Assembly: GCA_018715175.1 (NCBI GenBank)
Contig: DVME01000098.1
Location: forward strand, 1-34,974
DNA from: Candidatus Limiplasma stercoravium
GTDB taxonomy: Bacteria; Bacillota; Clostridia; Christensenellales; Aristaeellaceae
Reading direction: 5' to 3'
Length of the DNA stretch: 34,974 bases
The notes beneath the pieces were generated by a model. The model did not search any database and had not been told where the DNA came from. It worked only from the letters and a program-made list of their open reading frames with translations. Of this stretch, positions 11,845 to 31,414 are shown one piece after another. Made by a program: the position numbers and the translations under genes. Numbering within the stretch: position 1 is the stretch's first letter; every line of letters begins with the position of its first letter.

Positions 11845-12003
11845 ATGTTCAAATTCAAACGTCAAGCCAGTTGGGGCTGGGGGGTGCACGTAGACCGGGA
11901 CGGCCGCCTGCACGACCCTTTTCCCATTCCCAAGGCGCAAAAATCCACCACCGTTCGCAAAACGCGGCGCGTCAAAACCCGCGGTCGCCTGGCTCACGCC
12001 TAA
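11845..12003 (+). CDS. Small basic hypothetical protein (52 aa)
   Basis: ATG at 11845 lies 9 nt after AAAGGAG and opens a 52-codon frame ending with TAA at 12001-12003. The protein starts MFKFKRQASWGWGVHVDRDG and its last 25 residues are strongly basic (KSTTVRKTRRVKTRGRL), so RNA, DNA or membrane-surface binding is plausible. It follows the phospholipase-D-like gene by 25 nt and is probably cotranscribed with it. No family is recognised. The good ribosome site and position argue for a real gene, but conservation has not been tested. Confidence 0.6.
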   Translation: MFKFKRQASWGWGVHVDRDGRLHDPFPIPKAQKSTTVRKTRRVKTRGRLAHA

Positions 12004-12005
12004 AA

Positions 12006-12023
12006 AAGCGGCGTGAGCCGCTT
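12006..12023 (-). terminator. Hairpin, terminator-like on the minus strand
   Basis: AAGCGGC and GCCGCTT form a 7-bp stem around a 4-nt loop. On the minus strand the stem is followed by a run of T, so it would end the oxidoreductase transcript after that transcript has crossed repeat copy 1. On the plus strand no T run follows. It directly abuts the stop codon of the 52-codon gene. Confidence 0.55.
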
Positions 12024-12027
12024 CTGC

Positions 12028-12231
12028 CTGTCGAAAAAGTCCGGCTACGCCGGCTTTTTCGACAGGTTTGCGCCGTTTCCCTCTCGCCCCTTTGGGGCTC
12101 CCGGGCGGGAAACGGCGTAAGGAAACCTTGCTGCGCAAGGCTTCCGAACCCACCGCGCATGTCGCTGGATTCGGAATGCAGCTCGGAGGGCTGCGGCCCT
12201 CCGAACCTCCTAAAAGGGTTTTTCGACAGTC
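12028..12231. repeat. Structured intergenic repeat, copy 1 (short form)
   Basis: 204 nt made almost entirely of hairpins. H1 at 12027-12066 has a 13-bp outer stem (CCTGTCGAAAAAG with CTTTTTCGACAGG) and an inner CCGGC-TAC-GCCGG stem. H2 is GCGCCGTTTCCC at 12070-12081 with GGGAAACGGCGT at 12107-12118. H3 is CCTTGC-TGC-GCAAGG at 12126-12140. H4 is TTCCGAACCCA with TGGATTCGGAA (12142-12176, one mismatch). H5 is CGGAGGGC-TGCG-GCCCTCCG at 12184-12203. The right end TTTTTCGACAG (12219-12229) is the inverse of the left end. From 12061 to 12189 it matches copy 2 at about 126 of 130 positions. It fills the gap between the 52-codon gene and the 3' end of the oxidoreductase gene; no protein is encoded. 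Confidence 0.92.
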
Positions 12232-12253
12232 TGAAGCGCCCCTGTGGGGCGGC

Positions 12254-13594
12254 TCATCGGCGCTTGGCGGCGTGAATGACGGCGTCATGCGCGGCGGGGG
12301 CATTCAGCACCCGCCCCACGCCGTCAAAGCATGAACCGTGGCAGGGGCAAACCCACAGGCGTTGGGCGCGGTCGTAGCGCATATGGCAGCCCATGTGCGG
12401 ACAGCGCGGGGCGGAAGGCCGCGCCAGCTGCCCGCCCAGCAGACGGCCCGCCATGCGCAGGGAAGCGCTGAGGTCGCCCGCGCCGTGGCGTCCGGCGTCA
12501 AACACCTCGTAGCCGTCCCAAGGAAGGCCCAGCACGCGCGCGCTGATGACCTGCGCGGCGGTCATCGCTCCCACGAGGCCGCTCGCGCCAAAGCCGGCCG
12601 CGATGAAGAGGTTGGGCGTCTTTTTCCCGTAGGGGCCAATGTAGGGCAGCCCGTCCGCCGTATGCGCCAGAAGGCCGGGCGCGGCCTCGCGTGCGGAGCG
12701 TCCCGGCGCATACCGCTCCAAAAGACGGGCCAGCAGGCCGTCGTTGTCCTTTTCGCCGGCATCCGCGCCCATGAGCGTCATCAGGGCGCCTGCCTGCGAA
12801 GCCCTTAGCGCATAGCGCCCGCCCAGGTCAAGGTAGGCGTCCTCAAACGCCGCCTCGCCCGTCAACCGCGCCAGCCATGCCTGGCGCTGCGTCATGCGCA
12901 GAAAGTACCACCCCGGCGTGTTGACGATGGGATATCCCGTGGCTACGACAAGATAGGGCGCGCGCACGCTGCCACGCTCGGTCGCGGCCAGGTTTGTCTC
13001 CATGGCGACAACGCGGGAACGCTCGTACACCCGCACTCCGCGTTCCACAGCCAGGCGCTCCACCCGGCGCAGGAGTCGCATGGGGTTGACCAAGCCCATG
13101 GCAGGCAGGGTTATGGCGCGCGCCGCTTTTACGGGCGCGCCGCAAAGATCGCCGACGGAGGCGGGAAGGCCGGCATCGTCCATCGCCCGCGCCTCGCGCT
13201 CCAGCGCGGCGGCGTCCTGCGGCGTCTGGCCCGTGAGGTGCAAGCTGCATTCACGCCATTGGCACCCGTCCTGCGCCAACTCGCGCAAGGATTTTAGCGC
13301 ATGCTTGCGCGCCTCGGCGCATTGACGGGCCGCCTCCAGGCCATAAGCCCGGCGAACAGCGGCGTATCCCGCGTCTCCCCAAAGGCCGGCGATGCCCGCG
13401 CAGCGGGACGTGGCGCCGCCGCCCAAGCGCTCGGCCTCCAGCACCGTAACCCGAAGACCCGCGCGCGCCAGCCACAATGCCGTTGTCAGCCCCGTCAGCC
13501 CGCCGCCCACCACCGCCACGTCCGCATTCACCCTTGCGCGCAGGGAGCCGTATTCGCGCGGTTGATGAGCATACCAGATGTCGCAACGCTGCAT
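12254..13594 (-). CDS. FAD-dependent oxidoreductase with C-terminal Rieske domain
   Basis: 446 residues. The N-terminus has the dinucleotide-binding motif VAVVGGGLTGLTTAL (GGGLTG at 30-35) and the protein has the general plan of the DAO (glycine/D-amino-acid oxidase-like) family, including FIAAGFGASGLVGAM near the end of the FAD domain. A Rieske [2Fe-2S] domain closes the protein: CPHMGC (Cys398, His400) and CPCHGS (Cys416, His419), with two further cysteines placed for the usual disulfide. Such DAO-Rieske fusions are known but their substrates are mostly undefined. ATG 13594 is 6 nt after GGAGGG; the ATG at 13600 abuts the site. Divergent from the dehydrogenase gene; its transcript would run into repeat copy 1. 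Confidence 0.92.
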   Translation of the reverse strand: MQRCDIWYAHQPREYGSLRARVNADVAVVGGGLTGLTTALWLARAGLRVTVLEAERLGGGATSRCAGIAGLWGDAGYAAVRRAYGLEAARQCAEARKHALKSLRELAQDGCQWRECSLHLTGQTPQDAAALEREARAMDDAGLPASVGDLCGAPVKAARAITLPAMGLVNPMRLLRRVERLAVERGVRVYERSRVVAMETNLAATERGSVRAPYLVVATGYPIVNTPGWYFLRMTQRQAWLARLTGEAAFEDAYLDLGGRYALRASQAGALMTLMGADAGEKDNDGLLARLLERYAPGRSAREAAPGLLAHTADGLPYIGPYGKKTPNLFIAAGFGASGLVGAMTAAQVISARVLGLPWDGYEVFDAGRHGAGDLSASLRMAGRLLGGQLARPSAPRCPHMGCHMRYDRAQRLWVCPCHGSCFDGVGRVLNAPAAHDAVIHAAKRR

Positions 13595-13647
13595 GCGCAT
13601 CCCTCCGTTTTTCTTCAGGCTGTCCAAGGCGGCGGCAAAGCATGCGC

Positions 13648-13676
13648 TTGCCAAGGGCGAAGCGTTTTGCTACAAT
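13648..13676 (+). promoter_or_regulatory. Sigma-A-type promoter of the dehydrogenase gene
   Basis: TTGCCA at 13648-13653 and TACAAT at 13671-13676 with a 17-nt spacer, 28 nt upstream of the ATG. Confidence 0.8.
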
Positions 13677-13704
13677 GGGCCAAAACGTTTTCTCGGAGGT
13701 CGCT

Positions 13705-14664
13705 ATGGCAAAGGTTGTCGTTACCTATGGCATTCCCTATTTAGAGGAAAGCATGATCGCTCCGCATACGCTGGTCGCCCCGCCGCCGCTTCGCGCTTTT
13801 GACCGCGCCGCCCTCGCGCGCGTGCTGCCCGACGCGGCCGCGGTACTCGCCTGCGGCCGTCTGGACGAGGATCTCATCCGCCTGGCGCCAAAGCTGCAAA
13901 TCATCGTCAGTTATGGCGCTGGGTACGACGCCATCGACGTGGCCGCCGCCACGCGGCAGGGCGTGCAAGTGGCAAACATTCCCGACACCGTCACCGCGTC
14001 CACGGCGGAGCTCACCGTGGCGCTCATGCTGGCGTTGGCAAGGGATCTGCCCGGCCTCAACGCCGATGTGCGCACGCGGCCCGGGTCGGACTTATTCGTG
14101 CTGGGGCAGGGAATGCACGTCTGTCTCAGCGGCGCGGCGCTGGGCGTGGTGGGCATGGGCCGCATCGGAACGCGGGTAGCGGACGTGGGCCGGGCGCTTG
14201 GCATGCGCATCCTGTATACGGCGCATGCGCCCAAGCCGCAGCGCGAAGCGCTGGGCGACCGTTTTCTGCCATTGGACGATCTGCTGCGCCAAAGCGACGT
14301 GGTAACGCTGCATTGTCCTTTGACGGCGCAAACGCGCGGCCTGCTGGACGCGCGGCGCCTGGCGCTGATGAAGCCCACCGCGTACTTGATCAACACCGCG
14401 CGGGGCGCCCTGGTGGTGGAAGAAGCCCTGCTGGACGCCCTGAAGACCGGGCGCATTGCCGGCGCGGGTTTGGATGTCTACCCAGACGAACCCAACGTGA
14501 ACCCCGCCTTTTTTGGGCTGAGCAACGTGGTGCTGACGCCGCACGCGGGCAGCAACACGCACAGCACGCGCCGTGCCATGGCTGCCGCCGCCATGGACTG
14601 CATCCGCCGGGCGTTGGAAGGGCGCGAAGTGGCCACCCTGGTCAACCCCGAGGTTCGGCTTTAA
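13705..14664 (+). CDS. D-isomer-specific 2-hydroxyacid dehydrogenase
   Basis: 319 residues. It reduces 2-oxoacids to D-2-hydroxyacids, or the reverse, with a nicotinamide cofactor. The Rossmann motif VVGMGRIGTRVA is present, and catalytic residues are visible as Arg in INTARGALV, Glu in YPDEPNVN and His in LTPHAGSNTH. After the second Rossmann strand the sequence is ILYTAHAPK, without the acidic residue that favours NAD, so NADPH use is possible. Sequence alone does not separate glyoxylate/hydroxypyruvate reductase from phosphoglycerate-type enzymes. Start at 13705 follows CGGAGGT with short spacing. The stop lies within a small palindrome (GGCTTTAAAGCC) and is followed by repeat copy 2. Confidence 0.94.
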   Translation: MAKVVVTYGIPYLEESMIAPHTLVAPPPLRAFDRAALARVLPDAAAVLACGRLDEDLIRLAPKLQIIVSYGAGYDAIDVAAATRQGVQVANIPDTVTASTAELTVALMLALARDLPGLNADVRTRPGSDLFVLGQGMHVCLSGAALGVVGMGRIGTRVADVGRALGMRILYTAHAPKPQREALGDRFLPLDDLLRQSDVVTLHCPLTAQTRGLLDARRLALMKPTAYLINTARGALVVEEALLDALKTGRIAGAGLDVYPDEPNVNPAFFGLSNVVLTPHAGSNTHSTRRAMAAAAMDCIRRALEGREVATLVNPEVRL

Positions 14665-14672
14665 AGCCTTTT

Positions 14673-14699
14673 TGACCGCCTGCTTGACGCAGGCGGTCT
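14673..14699. repeat. 27-bp hairpin direct repeat, left copy
   Basis: A hairpin (GACCGCCTGC, 5-nt loop, GCAGGCGGTC) starting 8 nt after the dehydrogenase stop codon. The same 27 bases, without a mismatch, occur again at 15034-15060, so the pair brackets repeat copy 2. This left copy has no T run after it, so it is a damaged or displaced terminator. Confidence 0.9.
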
Positions 14700-14703
14700 C
14701 AGG

Positions 14704-15031
14704 CTGTCAAAAAAGCCCGCCTGCGGCGGTCTTTTTGACAGGTTTGCGCCGTTTCCCTCTCGCCCCTTTGGGGGCTCCCGGGCGGGAAACGACGTAAGGA
14801 AACCTTGCTACGCAAGGCTTCCGAACCCACCGCGCATGTCGCTGGGTTCGGAATGCAGCTCGGAGGGGACGGAGGGAAGCGTCAGCCCAGTGGTCTGTTG
14901 CCACCGAAGGTGGCAAAGCGACCCGAAGGAGTCAATCGAAACGAGCGGTGGGCGCGGCCAGCGCCCGCCGCGACGATTGAGGTTGCGGGTCTGCGGCCCT
15001 CCGAACCTCCTGGAACGGTTTTTCGCCAGTC
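14704..15031. repeat. Structured intergenic repeat, copy 2 (long form)
   Basis: 328 nt, same orientation as copy 1 and with the same hairpins. H1 (14704-14741) differs from copy 1 at 8 of 38 positions, four of which make two compensatory pair changes (G-C to A-T in the outer stem, G-C to C-G in the inner stem). H4 is perfect here (TTCCGAACCCA with TGGGTTCGGAA). In H5, 123 nt (14868-14990) are inserted where copy 1 has the apical loop region. The insert folds on its own: TTGCCACC-GAA-GGTGGCAA (14898-14916), and TCAATCG/CGATTGA (14932-14938, 14974-14980) enclosing CGGTGGGCGC-GGCCA-GCGCCCGCCG. The right end (14991-15031) matches copy 1 at 37 of 41 positions. It occupies most of the 494-nt gap between the dehydrogenase and deacetylase genes. 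Confidence 0.92.
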
Positions 15032-15033
15032 CG

Positions 15034-15067
15034 TGACCGCCTGCTTGACGCAGGCGGTCTTTTTTTG
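15034..15067 (+). terminator. Intrinsic terminator, right copy of the 27-bp hairpin
   Basis: 10-bp GC-rich stem (GACCGCCTGC with GCAGGCGGTC) followed by seven T residues. It is a canonical terminator and probably the original end of the dehydrogenase transcript before repeat copy 2 was placed between the two hairpin copies. Confidence 0.92.
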
Positions 15068-15158
15068 TCCTTTGGAGGCTTGTTGCGTCGTATGGCGTCG
15101 CAGGGACACATAGAGCGTCCGACACGCACATACATAGTGGTTGCAAAGGAGTGATACC

Positions 15159-27825: not shown

Positions 27826-27856
27826 TCTAATACCTTAATCATGGAGGCGGCGCTTG

Positions 27857-30800
27857 ATGTACACGGCTCCCTCGCGCAGCTTGGTTCGCTGCTTTTTCTT
27901 CTGGCTGCTTACGGCCCTTCTGGTTTTGGGTCTTTCTTGCGCGCAGGCGCAAGACGTGTTTGTGGTGGAGGGCGTAGCATATGTGGACGCCAACGCCAAC
28001 GCCGCGGCCGACGCGGACGAAGGCCTCATCGCCGGCGTGCCGGTGGCCCTGGAGCGCCTTCAAGGCGGCGCCTGGACGCAGGTGGACGCCGCGGAGGTGG
28101 ACGCCTATGGCGCCTACCGCTTTGAGACGGCGCAGGCGGGCACCTATCGCGTGGTCTGCCTGCTCAGCGGCGCGCATCTCTACGCCGCGAGCATCGGCGG
28201 CGCGGAGCGTTACGAGGGCGTGGCCACGGTGGGCGATGCGTTCGATCTGGACGCGGCGGCTGCCCTGGCGACGCAGGACATCGGCTTGCTTCCCAGCGCC
28301 GCGCTTCACATGACCGTCTTTTTGGACGAAGACCGCGACGGCCTGCCTGCGGCAAATGCGCAGGGCGTGGCGGGCGTGCGCGTGGCGGTGTTGTGCGATG
28401 GCGAGGTTCTGACCAGCGCCACGACGGACGAGTCGGGCGCCGCCCTGCTGCAAATGCGTCCGGGCTCCTATTCGGTAAGCCTTACGCTCGATGAGGGGTA
28501 CGCCTTTACCCAGCAGGCCGAAGGCGGCAGCTGCGTGGGAAGCGGCGAGGGCGCTACCGCTGTCAGCGGCGTTTATGCGTTTGCCGGCGGGGAGCAAACG
28601 GATCTCATGGCAGCGGTCGCGCCGGGCGGTTCGCTCAGCGGCAAGGTCTTTGAGGACGTGGATAACGACGGCCTCATGGCCCAGGACGATCCCGGCGTGG
28701 CGGGCGTCACGGTGCGCATTGTCGGCAAAAACACCGGCACCCAACGCTCCATCCTCACCGACGAAACCGGCCTGTACAGCTTTGATTCGCTTCCGGCGGA
28801 CACGTATGCCATCAGCGCCGAGCTGGGCGAGGGCATGCTTTTTGCCCGGTATTCCTCCACCGGCGGCGACCTGCGCAGCATTTTCACCGGCGAAACGCTG
28901 GAGCGCACGTTCGTGGTGCGCAGCGGCGAGTCGGTCACGCAGCGCAACATCGGCGTCGTGCGCGACGGCTCCCTGACGGTGCAAGCTTTCCTGGATCTGA
29001 ACTATAACGGCGTCTACGACGAGGGCGAACCGGGCTATGAAGGCGTCACGTTGCAGGCGGAGCGCATCCAAAGCGGCGACACCACCGCCCGTTTGACCAC
29101 CGACGCCGACGGCCATTGCGTGTTGGAGGGCTTGCGCAACGGCACCTACCGCCTGCGCGCCATTCTGCCCGACGACGGCAGCGTGTTTAGCGCCACCGCG
29201 GAGGGCGACGCCAGCCTGGTCAACCTCTTTGAGCATCGCACCGGCCGGCGCGAAAGCTCGCTCAGCGGCATTGAGCTTGCTAGCGGCAGCTCGCAAACCG
29301 TGCTCGTCGGCGTGGCGCGGGGCGCGGTGCTCAGCGGCACGGTCTTTGAGGACGCCAACTACAACGGCGTTTATGACAGCGGCGAAAAGGCCGTTTCCGG
29401 CATCAAGGTCACGCTGGTGGACGCGAGCGGGCAGACCGTCGCCACCGCGACCACGGCCCGTTCCGGCGCCTATACCCTCAGCGGCGTCATGCCCGGCGAA
29501 TACACGCTGCGCTTCGCCCGCAAAAGCGACCGGTACGGCTTTACGCGCCTGCGCTCGGACGTGGCAGGCGGCAACGATGTCGTCGCCTTGGTGGACGGCC
29601 AGGGCGTCACCGCTGCGTTTACGGTGCTCATGGCCCAGGACATCACCGACCTCAACGCGGGCATGCTGCAAGCCGCCACCGTGGGCGGAACGCTGTTTGA
29701 CGACCTGAACGACAACGGCCTCAAGGATGAGGGCGAAGGCGGCATGACCAGCGCCGTGGTGCGCCTGGTATCCTCCGACGGGGAAATCAACCTCTCCAGC
29801 CCGGTATCTGCCGACGGCGCGTATTTCTTTGACGGCGTCATGCCGGGCGCGTATACCCTCACCTACGAGCTTGCGCCGCATTGCGAAATGGCGCGCCTGG
29901 CCGATGGCGGTAACCGTGTGAGCGATCCCGTCCTGGAGCTTTCCGTAGCCACGGGCGACCAAATCACCCTGCCCCTGGCCGGCGCGGTCACGCTGGGCAG
30001 CTTTGAGGGCGTGGTGTTTGAAGATCTCAACGCCAACGGCGTGCAGGACAGCAACGAATCTCCTCTGGCCGGCGCGACAATCCTTCTCACCCGGCAGGGC
30101 GATGAGGCGGCTTCCGGCAGCGTGACGACCGGCGCGGACGGATCGTTCTCGCTCACGGGGCTTCGTCCCGGCGAATACCTGCTGGAAATCCGCCTGCCGG
30201 AAGGCTACATTTTTAGTTATGAGCTGGACGGCCTGAGCCTGGCCACCCTCAACGCCCAAACCCTGCCCTGCTCCTGGAGCACGCTCACCGACCGCGTGGC
30301 AAAGGCCGTAGGCGCGGTGGTTCCCGGCTCGCTCTGCGGCGAGTTGTGGCTGGACGAAAACCGCAGCGGCAGCCGCGAGGCCGCCGAAGCCCTGGTGGAA
30401 GGCATCGGCATCGAGCTGGTGGACGAAAGCACCAACAGCGTCGCAGCCCGCACAGCCAGCACCGCCAACGGCTACCGCTTTGACAACGTACGCCCGGGTG
30501 TGTATACGGTGCGCATCCGCCTGCCCGAGGGCGCGTCCGGCATTGCCGCAACCCAGGCGTTTACGGCCGCCGGCAACTACCTGCAGGAATCGGGCGTGGC
30601 GGTCGCATCCGGCGAGGAGACGCAGCGCTTGGACGCCGGCCTGGTGATGACCACCAGCGTGGGCGGCACGCTGTGGCTGGACGCGGCCCAAGGCCGCCAA
30701 GCCGTTGCGGGCGTTACGGTGAAGCTCTTTGCCGGCGGCAGCCTGGAAGCGCTGAGCAGCATGCAAACCGGCGAGGACGGCGCCTACCGTTTTGACGGGC

Positions 30801-31414
30801 TATGGCCCGACGATTACGTTATCCAGGCCGATCTGCCCCAGGGCATGGTGTTTGTGCGTCCGGACGACCCGGCCTATGAAAGCGGCGCTTCGGCGGTGAC
30901 CGCCACGGGCGACGGCGTGGGCACCAGCGATTCGTTCTACCTGCACATGGCGCAGGATCAGACCGCCATGGACATCGTCTATATCCTGCCTGGCAAGGTG
31001 GGCGACATGGCCTGGCTGGACGAGAACCGCAACGGCCTGGTGGACGGCGACGAGCCCGGTCTGCCGGGGATTACGGTGCAGTTGTTGTCCAACGGAGAGG
31101 TCGCCTATGAAACCGTGACCGACGCCTTTGGCTACTACCAGTTCGCCGACGTCTACCCGGGCGAGTACGTCCTCAAGGCCATCGCCTACCCCGAATTGAC
31201 GCCCACCCTCGCGGTGCCCGAGCTTCGCATCATCTCCAGCTGTCTGGTTAGCGGCGACGGAACCGCGGCGCAGAGCGATCCTTTCACCGTCCTCAGCGGC
31301 GGCAATCACAGCGACTTCGACCTTGGCTACGTCCTCCTGGACGGCGCCACCCTTGATCTTCCCGATCCTCCGCACAAGGACTGGTCCGAAGCGTACGGAG
31401 GCGGCAACATCTAA
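27857..31414 (+). CDS. Large secreted protein of about ten SdrD-B-like repeats
   Basis: 1185 residues: a signal peptide (CFFFWLLTALLVLGLSCAQA) and then about ten tandem units of 100-120 residues. Each opens with a Gly-x-(V/L)-(F/W)-x-D-x-(N/D)-x-(N/D)-G-type loop, for example GKVFEDVDNDGLMAQDDPGV, GTVFEDANYNGVYDSGE, GVVFEDLNANGVQDSNE and GDMAWLDENRNGLVDGDEPG. Each continues with a G-x-Y-x-F turn and a YxL/YVL close. This is the SdrD B / prealbumin-like fold; the Asp/Asn loops suggest calcium binding and a rigid rod. The C-terminus (PPHKDWSEAYGGGNI) has no LPXTG, membrane helix or S-layer motif, so anchoring is unexplained. ATG 27857 is chosen 9 nt after GGAGG; a TTG at 27854 is possible. Confidence 0.9.
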   Translation: MYTAPSRSLVRCFFFWLLTALLVLGLSCAQAQDVFVVEGVAYVDANANAAADADEGLIAGVPVALERLQGGAWTQVDAAEVDAYGAYRFETAQAGTYRVVCLLSGAHLYAASIGGAERYEGVATVGDAFDLDAAAALATQDIGLLPSAALHMTVFLDEDRDGLPAANAQGVAGVRVAVLCDGEVLTSATTDESGAALLQMRPGSYSVSLTLDEGYAFTQQAEGGSCVGSGEGATAVSGVYAFAGGEQTDLMAAVAPGGSLSGKVFEDVDNDGLMAQDDPGVAGVTVRIVGKNTGTQRSILTDETGLYSFDSLPADTYAISAELGEGMLFARYSSTGGDLRSIFTGETLERTFVVRSGESVTQRNIGVVRDGSLTVQAFLDLNYNGVYDEGEPGYEGVTLQAERIQSGDTTARLTTDADGHCVLEGLRNGTYRLRAILPDDGSVFSATAEGDASLVNLFEHRTGRRESSLSGIELASGSSQTVLVGVARGAVLSGTVFEDANYNGVYDSGEKAVSGIKVTLVDASGQTVATATTARSGAYTLSGVMPGEYTLRFARKSDRYGFTRLRSDVAGGNDVVALVDGQGVTAAFTVLMAQDITDLNAGMLQAATVGGTLFDDLNDNGLKDEGEGGMTSAVVRLVSSDGEINLSSPVSADGAYFFDGVMPGAYTLTYELAPHCEMARLADGGNRVSDPVLELSVATGDQITLPLAGAVTLGSFEGVVFEDLNANGVQDSNESPLAGATILLTRQGDEAASGSVTTGADGSFSLTGLRPGEYLLEIRLPEGYIFSYELDGLSLATLNAQTLPCSWSTLTDRVAKAVGAVVPGSLCGELWLDENRSGSREAAEALVEGIGIELVDESTNSVAARTASTANGYRFDNVRPGVYTVRIRLPEGASGIAATQAFTAAGNYLQESGVAVASGEETQRLDAGLVMTTSVGGTLWLDAAQGRQAVAGVTVKLFAGGSLEALSSMQTGEDGAYRFDGLWPDDYVIQADLPQGMVFVRPDDPAYESGASAVTATGDGVGTSDSFYLHMAQDQTAMDIVYILPGKVGDMAWLDENRNGLVDGDEPGLPGITVQLLSNGEVAYETVTDAFGYYQFADVYPGEYVLKAIAYPELTPTLAVPELRIISSCLVSGDGTAAQSDPFTVLSGGNHSDFDLGYVLLDGATLDLPDPPHKDWSEAYGGGNI

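What the first reader, a model, noticed from the sequence alone, without database searches (positions are those of the whole stretch)
12028..15031. Structured, non-coding dispersed repeat family with two copies 2.7 kb apart
12028-12231 and 14704-15031 share the same order of five hairpins and are 126/130 identical from 12061-12189, in the same orientation. A 1-nt indel (4 versus 5 G, near 12093 and 14769) would shift any protein frame, yet the stems are kept, so the selected product is RNA or DNA structure. Both copies lie at gene 3' ends. I recognise no named family (not a ribosomal leader, ROOL/OLE-type RNA or IS end). It may be an undescribed structured RNA or a MITE-like element.
Basis: partly seen in the sequence, partly recalled or inferred. 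Interest (0 to 1): 0.85.

Follow-up and report, generated by a model that had tools for sequence, protein, structure and literature searches.

The report
Terminator-inserting structured MITE family
The two hairpin-rich repeats are copies of a small mobile DNA element that lands in the stop-signal hairpins at the ends of genes and can leave a copy of that hairpin on each side.

Summary
The repeats are real (126 of 130 columns identical) but not a two-copy local duplication: the genome has 49 core matches (reversed-pattern control 0). They are MITEs. Their ends abut a stem-loop at 49 of 58 left and 46 of 50 right ends (shuffled flanks 7/1160, 4/1000). 26 of 58 left ends match a stem-loop at a right end (same-end controls 2/58, 2/50), but 24 of these pairs lie on different contigs; within one contig 4 of 25 copies match (cross control 0/600). 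Window copy 2 has identical 25-nt terminator hairpins on both sides; G191 has one hairpin and no element there. Family relatives carry IS1182-family elements with similar ends; 3 of 6 with both flanks show the same duplication. IS1182-related MITEs are in print (PMC11578231, PMC3852290); duplication of the whole target stem-loop I found only as a hypothetical pathway (PMC5678879). Copy 2 also holds a ~137-nt domain with strong covariation (36 of 43 pairs), no Rfam gathering match, and matches in 60 of 250 family genomes; its function is unknown.

The parts
12006..12023 (.). Stem-loop left of copy 1
   Evidence: AAGCGGCGTGAGCCGCTT; 16 nt identical to the hairpin at a right end on contig C20, L134 (score 16)
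12024..12233 (+). MITE copy 1, about 210 nt
   Evidence: boundaries from end motif and hairpins, +/- 1-2 nt
12041..12053 (.). Left-end stem, terminator-like on both strands
12235..12254 (.). Stem-loop right of copy 1, different from the left one
   Evidence: 20 nt identical to the hairpin at a left end on contig C57, L011
14674..14698 (.). Left copy of the duplicated terminator hairpin, no T-run
   Evidence: identical to 15035-15059
14699..15034 (+). MITE copy 2, about 336 nt
14717..14729 (.). Left-end stem, terminator-like on both strands
14862..15002 (+). ~137-nt covarying domain nested in the last hairpin
   Evidence: model R1 match 147 bits, covariation
15035..15059 (+). Right copy of the duplicated terminator hairpin, followed by T7

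Best explanation
A family of non-autonomous elements (MITEs), most likely mobilised in trans by an IS1182-family DDE transposase. Element ends are TCAGnYYGTCRAAAAA; IS1182 ends in the same bacterial family are TCAGACCGYCGACAAA and similar. The target is the stem-loop of an intrinsic terminator, probably extruded as a cruciform. [quoted passage not shown] The left copy loses the T-run and the right copy keeps it. The element's own left end (A-run, GC stem, T-run) is terminator-like on both strands, so insertion should be nearly silent for the neighbours. The interior is a set of exchangeable stem-loop modules; copy 2 carries an extra ~137-nt domain. Shown: copies, ends, hairpins at ends, matched hairpins above controls, one well-anchored empty site, IS1182 elements with similar ends and targets, covariation. 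Inferred: movement in trans, cruciform recognition, strand-transfer positions, preserved termination. Unknown: what the interior domain does.
For: 49 core matches vs 0 control; 100 end-motif matches vs 4. Stem-loop at 49/58 left and 46/50 right ends, controls 7/1160 and 4/1000; left-right matches at score >=18 26/58 vs 2/58 and 2/50, at score >=14 30/58 vs 8/58 and 6/50. Within one contig 4 of 25 copies match at score >=14, cross pairs 0 of 600. Copy 2: 25-nt hairpins identical. Relatives: L122, L123, L125 perfect; duplicated hairpin in 6 of 25 chosen loci, control 0/600. Single hairpin and no element at the orthologous site of G191; in G144 an IS1182-type left end next to the same terminator, anchored on the downstream side only. 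NF033551 3.3e-127 for L180; own-genome fragment 267.2 bits, just under the cut-off of 270. 3 of 6 ISs with both flanks (L181, L182, L183) have the same hairpin on both sides, judged by eye. Stop codons face the element at 51 of 65 flanks, median 44.5 and 41 nt from the junction. IS1272 of the same family targets stem-loops and terminators (PMC4923244, PMC5678879).
Against: No transposition observed. MITE and IS ends are similar, not identical. The one IS1182 gene seen in this genome (C74) is cut by a contig end and its right end looks decayed. 32 of 58 left ends have no right end at score >=18, and 24 of the 26 matched pairs lie on different contigs, so their pairing rests on sequence alone. 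Within one contig 21 of 25 copies show no match at score >=14 (by eye L002, L061, L073 have diverged versions). I explain this by contigs breaking at the youngest, most alike copies, which is an inference. 3 of 6 ISs have different hairpins. 19 of 25 relative loci showed no duplicated hairpin. One search kept a few junctions that are not true ends (one each in L153 and L053). IS1272 replaces its target stem-loop without duplication (PMC5678879). Flank matching and gene calling are my own heuristics.
Confidence: 0.78

Rival explanations
1. A structured RNA family in its own right: the interior, above all the ~137-nt domain, is selected as an RNA (for example a transposition-related guide, a processing signal or a ribozyme) and mobility is its means of spread.
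For: Domain alignment A2 (59 distinct rows): 92.2% of cells paired against at most 39.8% when slid, 36 of 43 pairs with changes on both sides. Conserved motifs such as GTCAACCGAAACGAG and CGACGATTGAGGTTGCGG, partly in predicted pairs and partly in junctions. G-U cells 99 vs A-C 46. Matches in 60 of 250 family genomes, 12 of 50 genera; G057 has 6 domain matches there and no core match.
Against: No expression data. Elements lie in both orientations relative to genes. The only promoter-like site in 11950-15100 lies outside the elements. Cells are not independent events and A2 is fitted to the model. For the shared core G-U does not exceed A-C.
Confidence: 0.25
2. REP/BIME-like palindromic repeats moved by an HUH (Y1) enzyme.
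For: Palindromic, intergenic, dozens of copies, at gene 3' ends.
Against: Termini resemble IS1182-type ends and target hairpins are duplicated at some copies. That HUH insertion gives no target duplication is recalled. No search for Y1 transposase genes was made.
Confidence: 0.05
3. No transposition: the hairpins on the two sides are independent terminators of convergent genes, and the repeat spread by recombination.
For: Stops face the element on 51 of 65 flanks, so convergent sites seem common, and 21 of 25 copies held in one contig show no matching hairpins at score >=14.
Against: Left-right matches exceed same-end controls (26/58 vs 2/58 and 2/50) and cross pairs (4/25 vs 0/600); 25-nt identity at copy 2; single hairpin at the orthologous site of G191.
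Confidence: 0.06
4. The covariation comes from template switching that keeps imperfect palindromes perfect; the structure itself has no function.
For: Whole arms differ between genomes while remaining complementary; no G-U excess in the core.
Against: In the ~137-nt domain junction positions are conserved as well, which template switching does not explain.
Confidence: 0.2

Closest known systems
IS1182 family, studied member IS1272/TnSha1 (PMC4923244: passages, Results part 1, Discussion part 1; PMC5678879: abstract, passages, Discussion part 1)
   Same: Family of the likely mobilising transposase; targets stem-loops, several of them terminators, without primary sequence preference.
   Different: IS1272 partly deletes or replaces the target stem-loop and leaves no duplication. 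Here the whole stem-loop is duplicated at some copies, as in the hypothetical pathway b of Fig. 13 in PMC5678879. The window elements carry no gene.
MITEs related to IS1182: MITEPye1 of Paracoccus yeei (PMC11578231, passages) and ISMac2-related MITEs of Methanosarcina acetivorans (PMC3852290, passages with a table)
   Same: Short gene-less elements with IS1182-like inverted repeats; MITEPye1 is mostly intergenic, has direct repeats and is predicted to fold into long stem-loops.
   Different: MITEPye1 has 1-3 copies per chromosome; direct repeats of the ISMac2-related ones are given as 4 and 0 bp. The passages I saw do not describe duplication of a terminator hairpin or exchangeable covarying modules.
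Pneumococcal BOX/RUP/SPRITE repeats (PMC10969869 passages; PMC3049150 search listing only)
   Same: Small structured intergenic repeats; SPRITE is terminator-like.
   Different: No sequence or end relationship was tested; no hairpin duplication is recalled for them.
IS1202 and IS1634 groups with long target duplications (recalled only)
   Same: Long duplications.
   Different: Transposase and ends here are IS1182-type.

Membership tests
MITE (non-autonomous IS derivative) | Many short copies without a coding sequence | tested here: met
   49 core matches; about 210 and 336 nt in the window; a 1-nt indel breaks any shared frame
MITE (non-autonomous IS derivative) | Terminal inverted repeats | tested here: met
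   End motif 100 matches vs 4 control; ends listed
MITE (non-autonomous IS derivative) | Target-site duplication | tested here: met
   Above controls: 26/58 vs 2/58 and 2/50, 4/25 vs 0/600 within one contig; copy 2 25 nt identical; not seen at most copies held in one contig
MITE (non-autonomous IS derivative) | Empty orthologous site | tested here: met
   One site, that of copy 2: single hairpin in G191; three further relatives aligned on both sides (L254, L256, L260) also show one hairpin by eye
MITE (non-autonomous IS derivative) | Ends shared with an autonomous element | tested here: inconclusive
   Similar to IS1182 ends and same left-hairpin layout, not identical
IS1182 family (presumed mobiliser) | IS1182-family DDE transposase (NF033551; PF05598, PF13751) | tested here: met
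   L180 425.4 bits vs cut-off 270; own-genome fragment 267.2, just under, without PF05598 because its N-terminus is missing
IS1182 family (presumed mobiliser) | Insertion in palindromic targets | tested here: met
   Hairpins abut most IS ends listed (by eye; L177 is an exception); same hairpin on both sides in 3 of 6
IS1182 family (presumed mobiliser) | Transposase moves the window elements | not testable with these tools
   Needs a transposition assay
Rfam RNA families | Match at gathering score on the element or domain | tested here: not met
   0 matches; one search gave 5 hits with E 0.13-4.8, all below gathering; one search gave rRNA and tRNA beside the domain and one hit (E 0.48) touching its edge

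The most novel reading that the evidence does not exclude
The ~137-nt domain is an undescribed structured nucleic-acid class, found in 60 of 250 sampled genomes of one bacterial family, that acts as a single strand (RNA) and works with IS1182-type ends, for example in choosing or opening terminator hairpins; and the host elements are natural examples of whole-stem-loop duplication by a DDE transposase, so far only a drawn pathway (PMC5678879).
Probability: 0.2. Interest if true: 0.88.

Novelty: new variant of a known kind. Interest (0 to 1): 0.58.

Why it matters
If confirmed, hairpin choice by an IS1182-type transposase becomes measurable: an insertion with duplicated hairpins records which foot of the stem-loop was attacked, and the pathway drawn as a possibility in PMC5678879 gains natural examples. 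The elements also show how a mobile element can multiply between genes while bringing its own terminator. The covarying domain is a concrete candidate for a new structured RNA or DNA family. In practice such copies break, and may mis-join, metagenome contigs.

Tried and rejected
Local duplication only: rejected by the census. Known Rfam family: none at gathering score; relaxed search gave 5 hits with E 0.13-4.8. Plasmid or phage origin: no match for copy 1 in plasmids or copy 2 in phages; each was tried in one collection only. First guess from memory, IS1202-type long duplications: replaced when the transposase proved IS1182. First guess that the structured element is itself the end of an IS (L118): rejected, the IS there appears inserted in a hairpin of a copy. 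Idea that the element becomes a read-through 3' UTR: weakened when its left end scored terminator-like on both strands. RNA polarity of the shared core: no G-U excess. Orientation bias: none seen. Class-wide search for the domain: only the own genome, 1 of 341. Literature searches: (one search listed 15 of 63). In what I saw, whole-stem-loop duplication appears only as a drawn possibility; the library lacks most subscription papers and two reviews were not held.
Full report
OBSERVATION. The two repeats are as described: 126 of 130 columns agree between 12061-12189 and 14737-14866, with a G4/G5 indel; over 12028-12231 and 14704-15031, 189 of 204 aligned bases agree, and copy 2 has a 123-nt insertion in its last hairpin. 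Both fold better than shuffles (z -7.0 and -6.2). No Rfam family reaches gathering score in the window.

COPY NUMBER. A search of the window's own genome (2.38 Mb, 142 contigs) with copy 1 gave 47 matches, with only 40 of 117 first-look candidates scored. A core pattern with up to 3 mismatches gave 49 places and 0 for the reversed pattern; an end pattern with up to 1 mismatch gave 100 against 4. In a sample of 150 genomes of the same family, 10 (own included) have the core, in 4 of 50 genera; one, G046, has 71 matches. Exact core matches in named genomes: 36 stretches, from Candidatus Limiplasma pullicola, Clostridiales bacterium SUG39 and uncultured Eubacteriales BRZ_N__bin162. That G221 is SUG39 and G144 is BRZ_N__bin162 is my inference from equal contig lengths.

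ENDS AND TARGETS. Printed with flanks, copies begin near TCAGnYTGTCRAAAAA and end with its inverse, and both ends tend to abut a stem-loop. Of 113 end-pattern junctions with at least 25 nt of flank, one search dropped 5 that did not look like the element and kept 58 left and 50 right; by eye a few kept ones are not true ends (one each in L153 and L053). A stem-loop abuts 49 of 58 and 46 of 50 (directly, offset 0, in 43 and 43), against 7 of 1160 and 4 of 1000 shuffled flanks. For 26 of 58 left ends some right end carries a closely matching hairpin (score >=18); left-left gives 2 of 58 and right-right 2 of 50. At score >=14 it is 30 of 58 against 8 of 58 and 6 of 50. The 26 matched hairpins run from 18 to 34 nt, so duplication length follows the hairpin.

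A LIMIT. 24 of those 26 pairs lie on different contigs; their pairing rests on sequence alone. Among 25 copies whose two flanks are held in one contig, 4 (L003, L004 which is window copy 2, L007, L010) match at score >=14 against 0 of 600 cross pairs; 21 do not, although L002, L061 and L073 have diverged versions by eye. I think contigs break at the youngest copies, which leaves older or rearranged ones inside contigs, but this is an inference.

WINDOW COPY 2. Element 14699-15034 lies between identical 25-nt hairpins, 14674-14698 and 15035-15059; only the right one is followed by a T-run and scores as a terminator.

EMPTY SITE. In G191 (same genus) the orthologous spacer between the 2-hydroxyacid dehydrogenase and the polysaccharide deacetylase genes (Pfam) has a single hairpin followed by a T-run and no element. 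Three more relatives aligned on both sides (L254, L256, L260) also show one hairpin by eye. In G144 an IS1182-type left end stands next to the same terminator; that locus is anchored on the downstream side only.

RELATIVES. Perfectly duplicated hairpins flank L122, L123 and L125. Over 25 chosen relative loci a duplicated hairpin was found in 6 (L121, L122, L123, L125, L298, L302), cross-pair control 0 of 600; 19 showed none within 420 nt.

MOBILISER. PF13751 was found in 2 of 9 genomes tried, this one included. The transposase gene here (C74) is cut by the contig end, and its right end looks decayed. Relatives at E <= 1e-20 occur in 30 of 250 family genomes, own included. L180 is an IS1182-family transposase (NF033551, 3.3e-127; PF05598, PF13751, PF01609); the fragment of this genome scores 267.2 bits, just under the cut-off of 270. 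IS ends read TCAGACCGTTGACAAA, TCAGACCGTCGACAAA, TCAGACCGCCGACAAA and similar, and several IS left ends are followed by an inverted copy of themselves, as in the MITE. Of six ISs with both flanks, L181, L182 and L183 have the same hairpin on both sides; L180, L186 and L188 do not (by eye). In L118 an IS end sits in a hairpin of a MITE copy, and in L220 a MITE sits next to an IS end. The link rests on end similarity, shared target and shared duplication; no movement was observed.

GENE CONTEXT. With a heuristic gene call (open frames scored by third- minus second-position GC), stop codons face the element at 24 of 31 left and 27 of 34 right flanks, a median 44.5 and 41 nt before the junction. 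Orientation shows no bias, and convergent sites appear frequent; PMC9208149 (passages) reports IS1182 overrepresented between convergent genes. The stem inside each left end is terminator-like on both strands, 12041-12053 and 14717-14729 (6 sites against 3.8 +/- 2.0 in shuffles, so the scan alone is weak).

STRUCTURED INTERIOR. Core stem: one pair occurs as C-G 64, T-A 38, A-T 7 and G-C 4 among 130 copies, but over all its pairs G-U cells (22) do not exceed A-C cells (31), with 67 other mismatches; some of the 130 were admitted with up to 7 substitutions. The domain at 14862-15002: in a 13-row alignment 15 of 43 predicted pairs have compensated changes. Model R1 finds it in 60 of 250 family genomes, 12 of 50 genera, and in 1 of 341 in a class-wide sample, the own genome; both searches used stricter filters. 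Alignment A2 (64 matches from 55 sources, 59 distinct): 92.2% of cells paired against at most 39.8% with slid partners, 36 of 43 pairs changed on both sides, with the caveat that A2 is fitted to the model. G-U 99, A-C 46, other 137, not corrected for relatedness. In L298 and L302 it lies between duplicated hairpins; in L301, L305 and L308 it lies near tRNA or 5S rRNA genes.

HOW IT LIKELY WORKS. [quoted passage not shown] IS1272 itself removes the stem-loop, as also in PMC4923244). Copies with duplicated hairpins here have the outcome expected of pathway b.

WHAT IS NEW. MITEs with IS1182-like ends are known: MITEPye1 (PMC11578231, passages) and ISMac2-related ones (PMC3852290, passages). New in what I could see are the whole-hairpin duplication, the exchangeable covarying modules and the ~137-nt domain.

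CAUTION ON THE WINDOW. Copy 1 has different hairpins left and right. The left one (12006-12023) matches a right end on contig C20 (L134, 16 nt), the right one (12235-12254) a left end on C57 (L011, 20 nt). In G191 and G144 the genes on the two sides lie on different contigs. Either two copies recombined or the contig is mis-joined at copy 1; without reads I cannot tell.

Noticed in passing
window 12006-12254: Flanking hairpins of copy 1 differ and each has its match on another contig (C20, C57), so the window may be mis-joined or recombined at copy 1; copies on C43 and C121 show the same pattern.
   Followed up: partly
window 14862-15002; L293-L310: Strongly covarying ~137-nt domain, matches in 60 of 250 family genomes, no Rfam gathering match, function unknown.
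   Followed up: partly
L262, L264, L272 (G191, G144): A second, longer element class with the same left end and the domain but a different middle.
   Followed up: no
L301, L305, L308: Copies of the domain beside tRNA or 5S rRNA genes in other genera; in L301 a 17-nt non-palindromic stretch is duplicated.
   Followed up: no
L319-L322: Four viral contigs of IMG/VR hold the domain's conserved pattern; L321 (8.2 kb) has it at one end and about 0.5 kb from the other.
   Followed up: no
L251 (G144): An IS1182-type left end stands next to the terminator orthologous to that of window copy 2; anchored on the downstream side only.
   Followed up: partly
L220 (G000:C112): A MITE left end directly follows the terminal hairpin of an IS1182-type end: nested insertion.
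   Followed up: no
window 27854-31414 +: 1186-residue open frame with many SdrD B-like and SpaA-like domains, likely a surface protein.
   Followed up: no
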